Assembly: GCA_013215945.1 (NCBI GenBank)
Contig: JABSOM010000002.1
Span: 124,001-188,000, forward strand
Direction: 5' to 3'
DNA: 64,000 nt
Origin: Campylobacteraceae bacterium
GTDB lineage: Bacteria; Campylobacterota; Campylobacteria; Campylobacterales; Arcobacteraceae
Position numbers and translations under genes: made by a program. Numbering within the stretch: the stretch's first letter is position 1; the number at the start of each line of letters is the position of its first letter. The notes under the pieces are model-generated. The model was not told where the DNA came from. It made no database searches and saw nothing but the letters and a program-made list of their open reading frames with translations. Below, in pieces: positions 19,899 through 32,320 of the stretch.

Positions 19899-20068
19899 AA
19901 CATTCCTTAAAATTATAGTGGGCAATTGTATATTAATTTTGTTTAAGATTCGTTCAAAAGTAGGGTTTATTTTGTTTTTTAAGTAAAATAAGAGTATTTA
20001 GTTAACAAAAAATGCATTTTTAGGAAAAGTCAGGGCTAGGACAAAATAATTTATATTCTGGTTTTATT

Positions 20069-20092
20069 ATGTTTTCCCAAAAGGGAAAACAT
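20069..20092. terminator. Hairpin downstream of the rraA-like gene
   Basis: A perfect 10-bp stem (ATGTTTTCCC with GGGAAAACAT) with an AAAA loop lies six bases past the stop of the minus-strand RraA-like gene. There is no long T-run after it. Confidence 0.5.
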
Positions 20093-20097
20093 AGCAA

Positions 20098-20580
20098 TTA
20101 AATAAGTTTTTCTTTTGAAATAATTACGCCATCACAATCCGCATATAAATAATCGCCTTCATGAAAAGTAACACCCCCAAAACTTAATTGGTCTCCTCTA
20201 GAAGATTCTGTTTTATCAAAATTTCTTAATGGGCATGCACCAATTGCATATAATGCTACATCAATATTTCTAGTATGTGCAGTATCTCTTACATAACCGT
20301 TTAAAATTATCGCTTGCCAGTTATTGTTTTTTGCAAAAGCCATTAATTTATCACCAACAACTCCATAAAAATATTCTGCATTATCAACAACAACGATTTT
20401 TCCTTCACCGTCTTCATCTCTTAGCATTTCTAATAATCGCCAGTTACTTTTATCTAGTTTAATAGTGATTATTTGACCAAAACACTTTTTAAGTCCTCCA
20501 TAGTTTTTGAATTTAGGGCTAAGTATTTGTATTTTTTTATCTTGATTGTCATCACATAAATCTGCTGTTTCGAAGTGCAT
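20098..20580 (-). CDS. rraA: RraA family protein (RNase E regulator / HMG aldolase-like)
   Basis: This 160-residue protein covers the complete RraA fold. It has an N-terminal TADLCDDNQDK, GGLKKCFGQIITIK, GVVGDKLMAFAKNNNW, and NGYVRDTAHTRNIDVALYAIG, where the Arg-Asp pair is the metal and keto-acid site of the related aldolases. RraA inhibits RNase E in E. coli. Homologues without that role are 4-hydroxy-4-methyl-2-oxoglutarate aldolase or oxaloacetate decarboxylase. RNase E is usually missing from Campylobacterota, so the enzymatic role may be more likely here. It is monocistronic. Confidence 0.85.
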   Translation of the reverse strand: MHFETADLCDDNQDKKIQILSPKFKNYGGLKKCFGQIITIKLDKSNWRLLEMLRDEDGEGKIVVVDNAEYFYGVVGDKLMAFAKNNNWQAIILNGYVRDTAHTRNIDVALYAIGACPLRNFDKTESSRGDQLSFGGVTFHEGDYLYADCDGVIISKEKLI

Positions 20581-20871
20581 TTTATTCCTTACTTGTCTTT
20601 TAGATTATCATACAAAAATATACATAAGTTGATTTAAGATATTAAAAAATAGGTTTATAACAAATTATAAATATTTCGTATATGAAATTCTATTATAATA
20701 TACTTTTATGTAAATAAAATGTGCTTATGAATTATAAAAGATATTTTTGATAAAAATGTTCTAGTATTACCATTTTTTTAAAAAAAGAAAAAAATATCTG
20801 CAAAGATAAGTATATATATATTTTATTACAAGTATACTGTAAATTAAAAGCTCTTTTATTTTAGGTTCTAG

Positions 20872-23166
20872 ATGAAAAAAAACTTTACTGCCAGATTAAT
20901 TATATTATCAATATTTTTTATTATTATTTCTGTGTTTTTTCTTACTGTTTATAATATTTATGTGTTTAATGAGTATAAAGAGATGTTGATTAAAAAAGAA
21001 ACAAAACGTTATATCAATAAACAAAAAAACATTATAGAAGGTAAAGTCAAGTTTATTACTAGTATTTTTGAGGCAAAATCCTTAGATTTAGAAGATGGGT
21101 TAAAAGAAAAAATAAAAACTAGAATTAATAATGCTGTTAACCTAAGCAACAAGATTATTGATGAATACAAAAATAAAACTACATCTGCTGAATTAAAATT
21201 AATGTTAATAAATATCTTTCAAAATGTAAAATATAAAAATAAAAATGAATATATCTTTATAACGGATATTAATACTGAAAGAATACTTGTTCATGGCAAT
21301 GAACGAATCATTGGTAAAAAAGTCACTGGTTTATCCCAAGTAGAATTAAATGAATTAAGAAGTCTAAAAGATTCAGATGGAATATTTCATAAAATACGTT
21401 TTCCAAAACCTTCTGGTATTAATGAAAAGTTTGAGAAGTTAATTTATCTTAAAAAAATCAAACACTTTAATTGGTTGATTGGTACAGGTATATATCTTGA
21501 TGATATGCAAAAAGAATTAAAACTTCAAAATTTAAAAATATTACAACGTTTGAAAAAGGATAAAAAACACTATCTCTTTCTTTTTGAACTGTATAATCAA
21601 AAAATAAATGATAATTATGGAAAAATTATTTTACATCAAGGCAATAGAAGTTTAAAAGGCAAAGTACTTTCTTTGAATACCCCTAGTAAAAGAAAGAATA
21701 CCTACAGAAAAGAGTATTTATCTTTATTAGATACTTATGGAGAGGGTTTTGTAACCTATTATTACCCCAAAGGAACGTCATCAACCTTGCATAAAAAAAT
21801 GTCTTTTTTCTTTTTGATAAAAGAATTATCTTGGGTGGTAGGTACAGGTTTTTATTTTGATGATTTGCAAAAAGAGATTGATAGTATTACTAAGAATATT
21901 AACGTTCAAATAGAAAATTATATCGTTACGGCTGTTTATATTGCCATTTTTTTATCTTTTTTAACGTCTTTGGTTTTTTATTTTACTTCTCGAAAAATAG
22001 CAGCTACTATTAATAGTTATGCAAGAGATATAAAACAGAGCAATAAAGATTTAATAAAACAAAAAAATGTTTTTAAAACACTTTATGAAAAATCTGCGGA
22101 TGGTATTATAATGTTAAATGAGGGAGCTAATATTATTGGCTGTAATCAAGCTGTTTTAAAAATATTAAAGTATAAAAATAAAGATGATTTTTTGATTTTG
22201 AATGTATATGATGTTTCTCCTTTGAAACAAAAAAAGGGTGAAAAATCATTTCAAAAATGGAATAAATATATTGAAATATGTATTCAAAAAAAATCAACTA
22301 ATTTTGAATGGTTATTTCTTCAAAAAAACGGAAAAAAAGTTTGGTGTGATATCACTCTTACCCAGATAAAACTTGATGATGAAACTGTTATCCATATTGT
22401 ACTAAGAGATATTTCAAGTAAAAAAGATTTAGAATCAGAAATGCAAAAACAGCAAATTGTTCTTGCCCAACAATCTAAAAAATCTGCAATGGGTGATATG
22501 ATTGGTAATATTGCACATCAATGGAGACAACCTTTAAATAATGTTTCTTTGCTTATACATTATTTAAGAGATAATTGTCTTAATATGAATGAAAAAGAAA
22601 TTCATAAAGATGTAGAAAACTGTATGATACAACTCAATTATATGTCTAAAACAATTGATGATTTTACAAATTTCATTAACCCAAATAAATCAAAAGAACA
22701 TTTTAATTTACAAGATACTTTTGTTAAAGTATTTACTATTATTTCTGCTCAATTTAATGATAAAAACATTAATCTTAATGAAAATATTGAAAAAATTAAC
22801 ATGTACGGAATTGAAAATGAACTGATGCAAGTTGTTATTAATATCTTAAATAATTCAAGAGATGCATTACTTTCTAATGAAATCGAAAATAAAATGATAT
22901 TTATTGATGCATATACAAAAAATGAAGAAATTATTATAAAAATAAAAGACAATGCAGGTGGCATTGACAATGCAATTATTACTAGAATATTTGAACCTTA
23001 TTTCACAACAAAAAAAGAACATGAAGGCGTAGGAATTGGTTTATATATGGTTGAAGAAATTATAGAGAAAGAATTAAATGGAAAAATTCTGGTAAAAAAT
23101 GTAGAATATGAATATCAAAATAATATTTTAAAAGGTGCTGAGTTTAGCATTCGTTTAACACTTTAA
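20872..23166 (+). CDS. Double-Cache/PAS sensor histidine kinase (first of a tandem pair)
   Basis: This 764-residue kinase has a membrane segment at about residues 9-30 and two Cache-like units, each ending in a similar WLIGTGIYLDDMQKE / WVVGTGFYFDDLQKE motif. A second membrane segment follows near 360, then a PAS domain (ADGIIMLNEGANIIGCN), a HisKA segment with the His near 547 (IAHQWRQPLNN) and an HATPase (GVGIGLYMVEEIIE). A near-identical paralogue follows after 316 bases. There is no response regulator beside either. The 291 bases upstream contain a TATAAT at 20694-20699 and nothing else recognisable. Confidence 0.92.
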   Translation: MKKNFTARLIILSIFFIIISVFFLTVYNIYVFNEYKEMLIKKETKRYINKQKNIIEGKVKFITSIFEAKSLDLEDGLKEKIKTRINNAVNLSNKIIDEYKNKTTSAELKLMLINIFQNVKYKNKNEYIFITDINTERILVHGNERIIGKKVTGLSQVELNELRSLKDSDGIFHKIRFPKPSGINEKFEKLIYLKKIKHFNWLIGTGIYLDDMQKELKLQNLKILQRLKKDKKHYLFLFELYNQKINDNYGKIILHQGNRSLKGKVLSLNTPSKRKNTYRKEYLSLLDTYGEGFVTYYYPKGTSSTLHKKMSFFFLIKELSWVVGTGFYFDDLQKEIDSITKNINVQIENYIVTAVYIAIFLSFLTSLVFYFTSRKIAATINSYARDIKQSNKDLIKQKNVFKTLYEKSADGIIMLNEGANIIGCNQAVLKILKYKNKDDFLILNVYDVSPLKQKKGEKSFQKWNKYIEICIQKKSTNFEWLFLQKNGKKVWCDITLTQIKLDDETVIHIVLRDISSKKDLESEMQKQQIVLAQQSKKSAMGDMIGNIAHQWRQPLNNVSLLIHYLRDNCLNMNEKEIHKDVENCMIQLNYMSKTIDDFTNFINPNKSKEHFNLQDTFVKVFTIISAQFNDKNINLNENIEKINMYGIENELMQVVINILNNSRDALLSNEIENKMIFIDAYTKNEEIIIKIKDNAGGIDNAIITRIFEPYFTTKKEHEGVGIGLYMVEEIIEKELNGKILVKNVEYEYQNNILKGAEFSIRLTL

Positions 23167-23423
23167 GCAACAACTTAAACCCCTTTTTAGAAAAAAAGCT
23201 AAAATCACGATACTTCCCTTTTTATTCCCTGCGCTTCTTTATTAAAAAACGAGGTTAATAACATACTTCTAGAAGATAAAATACCCTACAAACAGTTTTA
23301 ATATACATAATATTTTTTTAACTTTTAGTAAAAAAAATGAACTTTAGAGAGCTTATTCTTTCATAATTTAAGACTTAGGAAAATATTTCTTCAATATCAA
23401 ATTACTTTCATATTATTTATGTA

Positions 23424-23468
23424 TAATTAAAATCTTAATAATTAAATAAATTATTAAGATTTTAATTA
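23424..23468. repeat. Perfect 20-bp inverted repeat in the leader of the second kinase gene
   Basis: Positions 23424-23443 and 23449-23468 are exact inverted copies with a 5-base spacer. The whole element is A/T except for one C/G pair per arm. It ends 14 bases before the ATG at 23483, just ahead of the AGGA ribosome site. It could be an RNA hairpin that masks translation, an operator, or a terminator-like structure. The rest of the 316-base gap (23167-23423) shows no gene. Confidence 0.8.
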
Positions 23469-23482
23469 GTTGTTAGGAAAAA

Positions 23483-25765
23483 ATGAAACAAAATTTCACT
23501 GCAAGACTCATCGTTTTATCCATTTTTTTTATTGTAGTATCTGTTTTTTTATTAACTGTTTATAATATATATTTTTTAAATGAATATAAAAATATACTTA
23601 TCAAAGAAGAGTCAGAAGTCTTTATTAGTAAACAGAAAAAGATTATTGAAACAAAAGTACGTTATGTTGCAAATACTTTTAAGTTGAAAGCCTTAGAAGT
23701 TGAAGACGTATTAAAAAAACGCATTAAACTAAAAATTGATAATGCTGTTATTTTAAGTAATGCAATGATAAAAAAATATAAAAATACATTAAATAAAAAA
23801 GAGTTGAATCATTTGATTCATACTATGCTTACCAATATGAGATATGAAAATAAAAATGAATATATATTTATAACAGATTTGAAAACAGGACGAGTTCTTG
23901 GGCATCCCAATAAAAATATTTTGGGTAAACATGTGACAGAATTGTTTGTTATGAAAGGTCATAGTATTTTTAACAGAGATGGTGTTTATGAAAAAATTTA
24001 TTTTACGAAATTAAATGCTGGAAAGAAAAAATATGAAAAACTATTGTATACAAGAGAGATAAAAGAACTTAATTGGATTATTGGCACAGGAATTTATTTA
24101 GATGAGTTAAAAAAAGAAATTCAAGAACAAACTATCAAATCTTTTGAAGCGTTAAAGTATGATAACAATCATTATTTATTTTTATTTAAATTGTATGCAA
24201 AGCAGCAAGGTGAATATTATGGAGAAGTTATTATCAATCAAGGGAATGCTTCATATAATGGCAAAAAGTTAAAACTTAATACTACAAATGTGAGCACGAA
24301 TAACTATCGAAAAAGTTATTTAAAACTGTTAGAAGAAAAGAATGAGGGTTTTATTTCTTATTCATTTTCAAAAAATAATAGCGAAAAAGAGAACAAAAAA
24401 ATGTCTTTCTTTTATCTGGTAAAAGATTGGAATTGGGTTATTGGTTCTGGTTTTTATTTTGATGATTTACAAAAAGAAATTGATGAAATCAGGAATAATA
24501 TAAATACTCAAATAGAAAATTATATTTATGTTGGTATTTACATTTCAATTTTATTGTCTTTATTAACTTCTTTCGCTTTTTATTTAACATCAAGAAAAAC
24601 AAAATTAACAATTGACCAATATGCAAAAGACATTAAAATGAGTAATGCCAAATTAAAAAAACAAAAAAATGTATTTAAAACATTATACGAAAAATCCTCG
24701 GATGGTATTGTATTATTAGACAAAGAGGGCATAATTATTGATTGCAATTATGCTATTTTAAAAATGATGAAGTATCAAAATAAAACAGAGTTTATTGGAT
24801 TAAGTACCTATGATATTTCCCCCTCCCATCAATTAGAAAATGACAGTCCTTTGGTTAATTGGAATAAAATAATTACACAATGCAGTATTCATAAATCAAG
24901 TAATTTTGAATGTTTATTTGTAAAAAAAGATCATGAAACAGTATGGTGTGATATTACCATTACGGAGATAGAATTAGATGATAAAACGGTATTTCATTCC
25001 GTAATACGAAATATCTCAAGGAAAAAATCTTTAGAGCTTGAAACGCAAAAACAACAAATTGTATTGGCTCAGCAGACAAAAAAGTCTGCTTTGGGTGATA
25101 TGATTGGCAATATTGCACATCAATGGAGACAACCTTTAAATAATGTTTCTTTAATTATTCAGTACTTACGAGACAATTGCATAAATTTAAATGAAAAAGA
25201 AATACGTAAAGATGTAGATGCCTGTATGATTCAATTAAAATATATGTCTAAAACAATAGATGATTTTACAAATTTTATCAACCCAAGAAAACAAAAAGAA
25301 ACGTTTAATTTACAAGATACTTTTCTCAAGGTTTTTACTATTATAAGTGCCCAATTTGATGATAAAAAAATAAAAATAAAAGAAAAAATCGATTTTATTA
25401 ACATTCTTGCTGTTGAAAATGAGCTCATGCAGGTTATTATAAATATTTTAAATAATGCAAAAGATGCACTAAAGGACTCGTCTTTTGAACGCTTTATTTT
25501 TATTAATGTTTATAGTGAAGACAACTTCGTTGTAATTGAAATAAAAGACAATGCAGGTGGCATTGATGATAAGATTATATCTAGAATATTTGAGCCTTAT
25601 TTTACAACAAAAAAAGAAAATGAAGGCGTAGGCATTGGTTTATATATGGTGGAGGAAATTATAGAAAAAGAGTTTAGTGGAAATATTCTGGTAAAAAACG
25701 TAGAATACGAATATGAAAATAAGATTTTTAGAGGTGCTTTGTTTACTATTCGTTTTGAGATATAA
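23483..25765 (+). CDS. Double-Cache/PAS sensor histidine kinase (second of a tandem pair)
   Basis: This 760-residue protein is a paralogue of the preceding gene with the same domain order: membrane segment, two Cache-like units (WIIGTGIYLDELKKE and WVIGSGFYFDDLQKE), membrane segment, PAS (SDGIVLLDKEGIIIDCN), His-box near residue 545 (IAHQWRQPLNN) and HATPase (GVGIGLYMVEEIIE). The N-terminal 30 residues and the kinase core are nearly identical to its neighbour, while the periplasmic part has drifted. A recent tandem duplication with diverging ligand range fits this pattern. An inverted repeat lies directly in front of its ribosome site. Confidence 0.92.
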   Translation: MKQNFTARLIVLSIFFIVVSVFLLTVYNIYFLNEYKNILIKEESEVFISKQKKIIETKVRYVANTFKLKALEVEDVLKKRIKLKIDNAVILSNAMIKKYKNTLNKKELNHLIHTMLTNMRYENKNEYIFITDLKTGRVLGHPNKNILGKHVTELFVMKGHSIFNRDGVYEKIYFTKLNAGKKKYEKLLYTREIKELNWIIGTGIYLDELKKEIQEQTIKSFEALKYDNNHYLFLFKLYAKQQGEYYGEVIINQGNASYNGKKLKLNTTNVSTNNYRKSYLKLLEEKNEGFISYSFSKNNSEKENKKMSFFYLVKDWNWVIGSGFYFDDLQKEIDEIRNNINTQIENYIYVGIYISILLSLLTSFAFYLTSRKTKLTIDQYAKDIKMSNAKLKKQKNVFKTLYEKSSDGIVLLDKEGIIIDCNYAILKMMKYQNKTEFIGLSTYDISPSHQLENDSPLVNWNKIITQCSIHKSSNFECLFVKKDHETVWCDITITEIELDDKTVFHSVIRNISRKKSLELETQKQQIVLAQQTKKSALGDMIGNIAHQWRQPLNNVSLIIQYLRDNCINLNEKEIRKDVDACMIQLKYMSKTIDDFTNFINPRKQKETFNLQDTFLKVFTIISAQFDDKKIKIKEKIDFINILAVENELMQVIINILNNAKDALKDSSFERFIFINVYSEDNFVVIEIKDNAGGIDDKIISRIFEPYFTTKKENEGVGIGLYMVEEIIEKEFSGNILVKNVEYEYENKIFRGALFTIRFEI

Positions 25766-25793
25766 AAAATCAAACATACAATCTTATCGCTCA

Positions 25794-26309
25794 ATGAAAA
25801 TACAATATTTACTGATTGTTTTTCTAAACTCTAATGCTTATCAAATGGCATTTAAGCTATTATCTTTTATGCAAAAAATAACGAATACTCAAGAGTTAAA
25901 AAGAAATTTTTTAGAAGTTTGGAAAGAGTGTACAAATGAAGATCGAGAAGCTCTTGTAAACTTTGAAAAAATTGAATACTTTAAAGTAAAACTAGAAGCT
26001 TACTTGAGTGAAGAGTTCACCTATGAAAAAGTTTTATTGGCCTATCATTCTTATGCATCTATTGCTTATGTTACTGCTGAATTAAAAGTAAATTCTAAGG
26101 TATATCTGGATTTCAAGAAAGAAAAATTTATGATTTTATCGTATAAAAAGAACTCAAATCCCGATACATGTTCTCTTGTATATTCAAACATTCCTTCTTT
26201 ATGCCAATACCCATTTTTCCCAGTTCCAGTTATGAATATAATAGATTGTATAGAAAGTAATGATGTCATTAACAAACTTGTTGACTACTATAATACTCAC
26301 GCCAAATAA
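25794..26309 (+). CDS. Hypothetical protein, about 171 residues
   Basis: I do not recognise this protein. The open frame reaches back into the kinase gene, so I place the start at ATG 25794, 28 bases past the kinase stop (no strong ribosome site is seen). A further in-frame ATG at 25845 is possible. The N terminus is hydrophobic over a short stretch but not a clear signal peptide. The body has YEKVLLAYHSYASIAYVTAE, then YLDFKKEKFMIL and a Pro-rich segment (FFPVPVMNI). The stop abuts the stop of the convergent dioxygenase gene. Confidence 0.5.
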   Translation: MKIQYLLIVFLNSNAYQMAFKLLSFMQKITNTQELKRNFLEVWKECTNEDREALVNFEKIEYFKVKLEAYLSEEFTYEKVLLAYHSYASIAYVTAELKVNSKVYLDFKKEKFMILSYKKNSNPDTCSLVYSNIPSLCQYPFFPVPVMNIIDCIESNDVINKLVDYYNTHAK

Positions 26310-27452
26310 CTAAGAGTTTCTTCTTTTTTTATGTTTTTTTATTTCTTCTTTAAACATTGAATACTTCCAGTCTTCTTTTAAAGCCTGTTGATACAATTCT
26401 TTTAATGTTTGTGGTGACATAGTTCCTAAAGGAAGGTCTTTATCAAGATTAGTTGGAAAAGAGTATGCATCACAAGCAGCTGTTAAAATGGCATCTAAAG
26501 AATGTTCATCAAAAAAGCCTTTTTTATAAACTTTGCGTAAGTCTTTATAAATATTAAGGCTAATTTTATATAAATCAACACTTTCCATTGCTTTTGAAAA
26601 AGCAGAAGATAACTGTAAAAGGTTCACCGATCTAATAATATTCTTACTTCTATTTTCTCCACCTGCATGAAATACTGCTGGATTAAAAAAGACGGCATCC
26701 CCTTTTTTTAGAGAAAGTTGAACATAAGACTTTTCAAAATAGCTTTTAAATTTTTCTTCTCTCCAAGCCAAATAACCATGTTTATATTGCTGTGAAAAAG
26801 GCAAAAATTTAGTAGGCCCGCTTTTTATAGGTATATCTACATGAGCTACTCCCCCTTGTAAGGTTAAGAGCCTTGACATGATTTGTGTATGCAAAGGATA
26901 AGAAAGTACTTCTGCATTTTCTTGGAAGCCTAAATGATAATCTCTATGAGGAGCTTGAGCTTTACCCTTTGGGTAAATGATATTTACTTGTGAGGTGACT
27001 TGATAATTTGATCCCAACCATGCTTTTGCCACAAGGGACAATAAGGGGTTTTTATAATATTCTAGAAAAACCTTTGCATCTTTAAGGGCACTTTTTTCAA
27101 AAGCATTCCAAATACGAGCATTTTGCCCACCTTTTGCAAAATGATCTGCTGCTTCTTTGTTTTTTTCTTCTTTTAAAATAGTATTAAAAACGGTATTCAT
27201 TTTATCAATAATATTTTTATTGTCAAAAAAGTTTTGAATCACAACAATGCCTGAACCTTCTTCAAATACTTTTGAAAATTCGATTTCATAAAACACTCGT
27301 TTTTTCTTTGAAAGGCTTTTTCTAAGTTTATTTCCATCATAAATAACAATATTCTTTTTTATAAGACAGGACAAAGGATAGTCTTCTTTTTTAAGTGTTT
27401 GTTTGCAAATTCTTTTAAAGTCTTGAAGTGAACATTTTTGTTGTTGCAACAT
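26310..27452 (-). CDS. Phytanoyl-CoA dioxygenase (PhyH) family Fe(II)/2-oxoglutarate oxygenase
   Basis: This 380-residue protein has the double-stranded beta-helix signature of PhyH enzymes. The HxD metal pair is in APHRDYHLGF and the distal His in VFHAGGENRS, the latter followed by an Arg that would hold 2-oxoglutarate. Family members hydroxylate or demethylate small molecules. It is the last gene of the minus-strand inositol operon (41 bases after a Gfo/Idh gene, good AAAGGA site). This suggests it modifies an inositol derivative, perhaps an O-methyl inositol. That substrate is a guess from context. Confidence 0.82.
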   Translation of the reverse strand: MLQQQKCSLQDFKRICKQTLKKEDYPLSCLIKKNIVIYDGNKLRKSLSKKKRVFYEIEFSKVFEEGSGIVVIQNFFDNKNIIDKMNTVFNTILKEEKNKEAADHFAKGGQNARIWNAFEKSALKDAKVFLEYYKNPLLSLVAKAWLGSNYQVTSQVNIIYPKGKAQAPHRDYHLGFQENAEVLSYPLHTQIMSRLLTLQGGVAHVDIPIKSGPTKFLPFSQQYKHGYLAWREEKFKSYFEKSYVQLSLKKGDAVFFNPAVFHAGGENRSKNIIRSVNLLQLSSAFSKAMESVDLYKISLNIYKDLRKVYKKGFFDEHSLDAILTAACDAYSFPTNLDKDLPLGTMSPQTLKELYQQALKEDWKYSMFKEEIKKHKKRRNS

Positions 27453-32124: not shown

Positions 32125-32138
32125 ATTTTGAACAAAAT
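32125..32138. promoter_or_regulatory. Operator-like palindrome, copy near the minus-strand operon
   Basis: ATTTTGAACAAAAT is a perfect palindrome (ATTTTG-2-CAAAAT). The extended 17-base sequence (read on the minus strand as TACATTTTGTTCAAAAT) recurs on the plus strand near the other operon. It lies about 120 bases from the iolG-paralogue start. It is likely the binding site of the pathway's unseen regulator. Confidence 0.6.
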
Positions 32139-32204
32139 GTATAGAGTTTTTTTAAATATACTTAATAAATGGCATTATGTGTTACTTAAGTACTCATAAT
32201 TGAT

Positions 32205-32241
32205 GATATAAATATTTTTAATACAAAAAAATATTTATATC
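32205..32241. repeat. Perfect 15-bp inverted repeat in the divergent control region
   Basis: GATATAAATATTTTT (32205-32219) and AAAAATATTTATATC (32227-32241) are exact inverted copies around a 7-base spacer. It sits mid-way in the 360-base gap between the two inositol operons. It could insulate the two promoters as a bidirectional terminator or bind a dimeric protein. Confidence 0.6.
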
Positions 32242-32265
32242 TTAATTAATGTTACGTTATTACCC

Positions 32266-32292: not shown

Positions 32293-32306
32293 AAAAAACT
32301 ATGTAC

Positions 32307-32320
32307 ATTTTGTTCAAAAT
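32307..32320. promoter_or_regulatory. Operator-like palindrome, copy near the plus-strand operon
   Basis: ATTTTGTTCAAAAT matches the 32125 palindrome in the opposite orientation, and the shared core extends to TACATTTTGTTCAAAAT. Flanks ATGTA and TACAT extend the dyad with a one-base offset. It lies about 46 bases before the start of the binding-protein gene, where it would overlap the promoter. Confidence 0.6.

What the first reader, a model, noticed from the sequence alone, without database searches (positions are those of the whole stretch)
23424..23468. Perfect 20-bp inverted repeat just ahead of a ribosome site
An exact 20-bp dyad with only a 5-base spacer ends 14 bases before the second kinase ATG. 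No equally long repeat precedes the first kinase copy. As RNA it would form a stable hairpin close to the ribosome site, so the two paralogues may be controlled differently.
Basis: seen in the sequence. Interest (0 to 1): 0.5.

Follow-up and report, generated by a model that had tools for sequence, protein, structure and literature searches.

The report
Conserved hairpin-forming repeat before kinase gene
A perfect inverted repeat in front of a sensor-kinase gene in an Arcobacter-like bacterium is real and is present, in slightly changed but still self-matching form, in the one close relative found to have the gene; most likely it makes a small hairpin at the start of the messenger RNA, a known kind of element.

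Summary
In detail: 23424-23468 is a perfect 20-bp dyad with a 5-nt spacer, 14 nt before the ATG of the second of two tandem dCache/PAS histidine kinases. It is the longest perfect close-spaced dyad of the window, longer than any in 80 simulated windows. No such repeat precedes kinase 1. The only other genome found with this gene (G001, apparently the MAG Arcobacter sp. NORP36) keeps it in place: 17 inner bp, same loop, one A-T to C-G change on both sides, three outer pairs lost. So it looks retained, but on n = 2. A TATAAT conserved in both overlaps the outer left arm; if it is the -10 box, RNA starts inside that arm and 9-13 bp are transcribed. I favour a 5'-terminal mRNA-stabilising stem, as described for Helicobacter pylori vacA; the genome has an RNase J-like protein and no RNase E/G match. 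Folding is a caution: for such starts the hairpin is favoured in G001, but in G000 a rival fold covering the ribosome site is. An operator and a neutral palindrome kept by template-switch mutation are live rivals. No second copy was found in the genome (up to 3 mismatches). Real, probably retained, of a known kind; mechanism unproven.

The parts
23424..23443 (+). left arm of the dyad (20 bp)
   Evidence: in G001 one change (position 9, A to C)
23444..23448 (+). 5-nt spacer / loop AAATA, identical in G001
23449..23468 (+). right arm of the dyad (20 bp); in G001 T to G opposite the left-arm change, and the outer three bases changed
23422..23427 (+). TATAAT, putative -10 box overlapping the outer left arm; predicted start about 23431-23435 (inference)
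   Evidence: conserved in G001; spacing rule from PMC3847290
23390..23421 (+). putative promoter upstream region; about 90% identical to G001, against 71-75% further upstream in the spacer (the whole region averages about 94%)
23475..23478 (+). AGGA, putative Shine-Dalgarno, 6 nt after the dyad and 4 nt before the ATG
   Evidence: conserved in G001
23483..25765 (+). kinase 2: dCache_2, PAS, HisKA (just under the curated cut-off), HATPase_c; 760 aa
20872..23166 (+). kinase 1, tandem paralogue (60% identical over the full length), no comparable dyad upstream

Best explanation
The dyad is part of the leader of kinase 2. RNA polymerase uses the TATAAT at 23422-23427 and starts at about 23431-23435, so the transcript begins with an AU-rich stem of about 9-13 bp closed by a 5-nt loop, followed by a short leader with the ribosome site. 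A stem at the very 5' end hinders the 5'-end-dependent decay machinery (RppH, then RNase J) and so stabilises the kinase-2 mRNA relative to that of kinase 1. Shown: the dyad, its presence with one paired change in one relative, the conserved TATAAT, an RNase J-like protein, and no RNase E/G match. Inferred: the start site, folding in the cell, and stabilisation.
For: Perfect dyad beyond chance. The orthologous leader in G001 keeps a 17-bp perfect inner stem and the same loop despite 5 differences in 45 bases; 5 random substitutions leave an inner stem of 17 or more in 0.13% of trials. The change at pair 9 (23432/23460) is A-T to C-G. TATAAT is conserved in both, in a stretch better conserved than the rest of the spacer. 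In G001 the hairpin forms with probability 0.90 or more at 37 C for the eight starts tried from 23390 to 23435. RNase J-like protein present (TIGR00649, 616 bits; RMMBL domain); no RNase E/G match. Precedent in H. pylori: the vacA 5' stem-loop at +4 to +30 stabilises its mRNA (PMC4843948; abstract, section 5 and passages read).
Against: Only two sequences; the paired change could be one template-switch event, and it alone is not rare by chance (at least one such change in 6.6% of trials). If the start is 23433 or later, pair 9 lies outside the RNA, so its conservation would not speak for an RNA stem. In G000, for starts 23432-23435 the model prefers another fold (0.83-0.92 at 37 C against 0.08-0.17 for the hairpin); that fold also begins with a stem at or near the 5' end but pairs with the ribosome site, and G001 does not form it. 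The stem has one G-C pair in G000, two in G001. The leader is no better conserved than the region's 94% average. The base two before TATAAT is T, not the g of the C. jejuni motif. No transcript data.
Confidence: 0.37

Rival explanations
1. DNA operator: a dimeric transcription factor binds the symmetric site that overlaps the -10 box and the start, and represses kinase 2.
For: A position from about -10 to +35 relative to the predicted start is typical of repressor sites (established knowledge). Spacer length and inner half-sites are identical in both species, and the paired change at pair 9 lies at or just before the predicted start, where an RNA stem may not need it.
Against: No second copy of the 26-base core (31-base site) in the genome with up to 3 mismatches; the 18-base core is no commoner than its reversed control (133 against 138), so no regulon is visible. 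Arms of 17-20 perfect bp are longer than most dimer sites (general knowledge). Among the immediate neighbours looked at there is no regulator gene (RraA-like protein, two kinases, an ORF without Pfam match). H. pylori-type Fur half-sites (recalled) would be 1 apart, here 7, and that motif is not enriched either (400 against 641 in the control).
Confidence: 0.28
2. Neutral palindrome: an AT-rich imperfect inverted repeat was perfected, and is kept near-perfect, by template-switch (quasipalindrome) mutation, with no function.
For: Template switching can create perfect stems and compensatory double changes in one event (PMC8794818, abstract and opening read; related papers seen in the listing). 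The two sequences are about 94% identical over the region. The outer three pairs were lost. Another hairpin in the same pair of genomes, 20068-20093, shows paired changes together with a reverse-complemented loop, a pattern that the abstract of PMC8604942 (listing) gives as a mark of template switching.
Against: No other perfect close-spaced dyad of this length in the window. The stretch holding it is better conserved than the neighbouring spacer. Of the 12 other dyads with arms of 10 bp or more, 11 are aligned to G001 and 10 of these show no paired change; the eleventh is 20068-20093.
Confidence: 0.27
3. The promoter lies further upstream and the entire 17-20 bp hairpin is transcribed, acting on ribosome access or decay from within the leader.
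For: The whole hairpin folds at -18.1 (G000) and -16.9 kcal/mol (G001) for RNA from 23424; for the three starts tried at or before 23428 it forms with probability 0.99 or more at 37 C in both.
Against: By reading, the one perfect TATAAT conserved in both just upstream of the gene overlaps the left arm. The sigma-70 scan of 23100-23600 found only two weak sites, fewer than its shuffles (mean 3.9), one of them (23255-23282) on this strand.
Confidence: 0.07

Closest known systems
Helicobacter pylori vacA 5' UTR stem-loop (mRNA-stabilising; PMC4843948)
   Same: Same phylum (established taxonomy); stem-loop near the 5' end of the transcript; base changes that keep pairing; organism without RNase E and with RNase J.
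   Different: The vacA stem-loop lies at +4 to +30 and ends 89 nt before the start codon in strain 60190; here the repeat overlaps the putative -10 box and ends 14 nt before the ATG, the gene is a sensor kinase, and no effect has been measured. No homology is claimed.
E. coli ompA-type 5' stabilising stem-loops (recalled, no call)
   Same: Terminal stem-loop that hinders 5'-end-dependent decay.
   Different: There decay is by RNase E, for which no match was found here.
Operator palindromes at promoters (general; Fur box of H. pylori recalled)
   Same: Symmetric AT-rich site over the putative -10/+1; contains TAATAAT and ATTATTA half-sites.
   Different: Half-sites 7 bases apart, arms 17-20 bp, no second copy found in the genome.

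Membership tests
5'-terminal mRNA-stabilising stem-loop | sequence able to form a stem-loop at the 5' end of the leader | tested here: inconclusive
   Dyad present. In G001 the hairpin is favoured for the starts tried up to 23435; in G000 only for those tried up to 23430, and for 23432-23435 another fold near the 5' end is favoured. The start site is predicted only.
5'-terminal mRNA-stabilising stem-loop | pairing kept by paired changes across relatives | tested here: inconclusive
   one paired change in one relative; could be one template-switch event
5'-terminal mRNA-stabilising stem-loop | transcription starts at or before the stem | not testable with these tools
   no transcript data; TATAAT suggests a start inside the left arm
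5'-terminal mRNA-stabilising stem-loop | disruption shortens mRNA half-life, restored pairing rescues | not testable with these tools
   needs an experiment
Transcription-factor operator shared by a regulon | further copies of the site before other genes | tested here: not met
   one copy of the 26-base core at up to 3 mismatches; no enrichment of the 18-base core over the control. A regulator with a single target is not excluded.
Fur box (H. pylori type, TAATAATnATTATTA, recalled) | half-sites one base apart | tested here: not met
   here 7 bases apart by direct reading
Intrinsic terminator | G+C-rich stem followed by a T run | tested here: not met
   none found in 23100-23600; the stem has one G-C pair
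Dispersed repeat (REP/MITE-like) | many copies in the genome | tested here: not met
   one copy in G000 at up to 3 mismatches; no exact copy of the two arms in 40 relatives
Known Rfam leader element | match to a covariance model above the gathering score | tested here: not met
   two matches below the gathering score in 20000-26500, neither on the dyad

The most novel reading that the evidence does not exclude
A start-site-dependent translational switch: in G000 the left-arm segment from 23433 can pair either with the right arm (ribosome site outside the hairpin) or with 23466-23478, the stretch ending in the AGGA, and which fold wins in the model flips between starts 23430 and 23432. The kinase would then be tuned by choice of transcription start. 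Against it: G001 does not form the second fold.
Probability: 0.05. Interest if true: 0.5.

Novelty: new member of a known kind. Interest (0 to 1): 0.26.

Why it matters
If it stabilises the mRNA, it is a further example, in a relative of Arcobacter, of 5' stem-loops setting expression in bacteria that rely on RNase J, and a way for duplicated sensor kinases to diverge in expression rather than in protein. Otherwise it is an ordinary operator or a neutral palindrome. The case is limited by having only two orthologues.

Tried and rejected
Intrinsic terminator of kinase 1: rejected, no G+C-rich stem with a T run found in 23100-23600. Dispersed repeat: rejected, one copy. Global operator or regulon: no enrichment; Fur box: spacing wrong and motif not enriched. 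Known RNA family: none on the dyad.

A shared element of dCache kinases: 30 loci, the ones one search returned out of many more matches, were surveyed (28 homologues plus the two kinase-2 genes). Only the two kinase-2 genes have perfect arms above 12 bp in the 160 bases before the start. Three homologues (L057, L062, L067) have arms of 11-12 bp, above all of their 50 shuffles, but 79-116 nt from the start; L057 and L062 could be terminators of the gene before (inference). For L051 no start codon was found and the projected start was used; the other starts are the nearest ATG, or GTG/TTG where no ATG was near.

More orthologues: searched 104 genomes of the family, the GTDB r220 contigs (the NORP36 record, plus one 30% partial match in a Bacteroidetes MAG), viral contigs (none) and plasmids (none). 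A fold covering the ribosome site is predicted in G000 for starts 23432-23435 but not in G001, so it is kept only as the novel reading. One literature search with the terms histidine kinase, stem-loop, 5 untranslated region, Campylobacterota and Arcobacter (at least 4 of 5) listed no paper.

I therefore lowered the best explanation from 0.42 to 0.37, raised the neutral reading from 0.24 to 0.27 and the operator from 0.27 to 0.28, and moved the novel case from 0.04 to 0.05.

Full report
Observation. The dyad is exactly as described: arms 23424-23443 and 23449-23468, 20/20 complementary, spacer AAATA, ATG of the second kinase at 23483. Among perfect inverted repeats with 3-10 nt spacers it is the longest in the window; the next has 15 bp, and 0 of 80 Markov-simulated windows exceeded 15 bp. 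No close-spaced repeat of similar quality precedes kinase 1.

Surroundings. Kinase 1 (20872-23166) and kinase 2 (23483-25765) are tandem paralogues, 60% identical over the full length, with dCache_2, PAS, HisKA (slightly below the curated cut-off) and HATPase_c domains. They are separated by 316 bp. The immediate neighbours looked at are an RraA-like protein and an ORF without a Pfam match, not regulators.

Relatives. Of 104 genomes of the family examined with the first 400 residues, only G000 and G001 show matches of 55% identity or more among the listed rows; the other listed rows are 33% or less, apart from one 41% partial match in G017 (further weaker rows were not listed). The window and G001 are about 94% identical in DNA over the region.

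Conservation. In G001 the spacer between the kinases is shorter and 71-75% identical in its upstream part, rising to 87-97% in the 30-base steps from 23390 to the gene, which is on the whole not above the 94% average of the region. The dyad is kept, its centre at the same distance from the gene: the inner 17 pairs are perfect and the loop identical. Pair 9 (23432/23460) has changed from A-T to C-G on both sides. The three outermost right-arm bases have changed while their left-arm partners, which belong to TATAAT, have not. With 5 random substitutions in the 45 bases an inner stem of 17 or more remains in 0.13% of trials, and at least one paired compensating change arises in 6.6%. This was computed after seeing the data and rests on one comparison. 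It favours retention but does not prove it: a single template-switch event can make a paired change (PMC8794818, abstract and opening read).

A control in the same pair of genomes. Of the 12 other dyads with perfect arms of 10 bp or more in the window, 11 are aligned to G001. Ten show no paired change. The eleventh, 20068-20093, just past the end of the RraA-like gene, has at least two paired changes and a loop that reads as the reverse complement, and remains a hairpin in both. So paired change is not unique to the kinase-2 dyad; the reversed loop there suggests that template switching does act in this lineage, while its place suggests a hairpin with a function of its own. It bears both ways.

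Promoter and start. A perfect TATAAT lies at 23422-23427, overlapping the left arm, and is conserved in G001. In Campylobacter jejuni 948 of 992 mapped starts had a gnTAnaAT motif 4-8 nt upstream and no -35 box (PMC3847290, passages read). By that rule the start is about 23431-23435, inside the left arm; the base expected to be g is T here. The generic sigma-70 scan does not list this site, presumably because it also demands a -35 hexamer. In so AT-rich a stretch a TATAAT can also occur by chance.

Folding. For RNA starting at or before 23428 (three starts tried), the hairpin forms with probability 0.99 or more at 37 C in both species. For later starts the two differ. G001 keeps it (0.90 or more up to 23435). 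G000 gives 0.78 at 23430 but only 0.08-0.17 at 23432-23435, where a fold that pairs the left arm with 23466-23478, ribosome site included, takes 0.83-0.92. That fold is also a stem at or near the 5' end, but it is not shared by G001. This is a result against the simple reading, and against a conserved role in ribosome access.

Mechanism. I favour a terminal stem that slows 5'-end-dependent decay. The genome has an RNase J-like protein (TIGR00649 at 616 bits; RMMBL domain) and no RNase E/G match, and in H. pylori a 5' stem-loop stabilises vacA mRNA: disruption cut half-life 1.6-fold, and a mutant with the structure restored was like wild type (PMC4843948; abstract, section 5 and passages read). 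The operator reading is the main rival: the site overlaps -10/+1, and the changed pair may lie outside the RNA. Against it, no second copy was found in the genome and its core is not enriched. The neutral reading remains open because there are only two sequences and because of the hairpin at 20068-20093. A survey of 28 homologous kinases found no comparable dyad near the start, so it is not a common feature of such kinases.

Verdict. Real, beyond chance, probably retained, found with this gene in two close relatives, and best explained as an ordinary kind of leader element.

Noticed in passing
window 20068-20093: Hairpin (11 perfect bp, 4-nt loop) just past the end of the minus-strand RraA-like gene; G001 has a hairpin there with at least two paired changes and a reverse-complemented loop, a template-switch-like pattern.
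   Followed up: partly
window 32195-32251, with 32126-32141 and 32304-32319: A second dyad (25-nt arms, 84%; inner 15 bp perfect) upstream of an ORF that reads like a periplasmic sugar-binding protein (ATG 32367, by reading), flanked by exact inverted copies of TTTTGAACAAAATGTA that look like operator sites. The 15-bp core is partly broken in G001.
   Followed up: partly
L037 1489-1526 (G000:C11:60291-60328): A dyad (15-base arms) whose spacer is TGTATAAT, upstream of a serine-recombinase-like ORF (by reading); imperfect in G001.
   Followed up: partly
window 20620-20739: This non-coding stretch between the RraA-like gene and kinase 1 is 100% identical to G001 over 120 bases, while the region averages about 94%; possibly a conserved leader or small RNA. 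No Rfam match there.
   Followed up: partly
window 23200-23380: The spacer between the two kinases is unusually diverged from G001 (71-75% identity, with about 45 extra bases in the window) compared with about 94% around it.
   Followed up: no
window 25713-26309: An ORF overlapping the end of kinase 2, with no Pfam match; its true start may lie further in.
   Followed up: no
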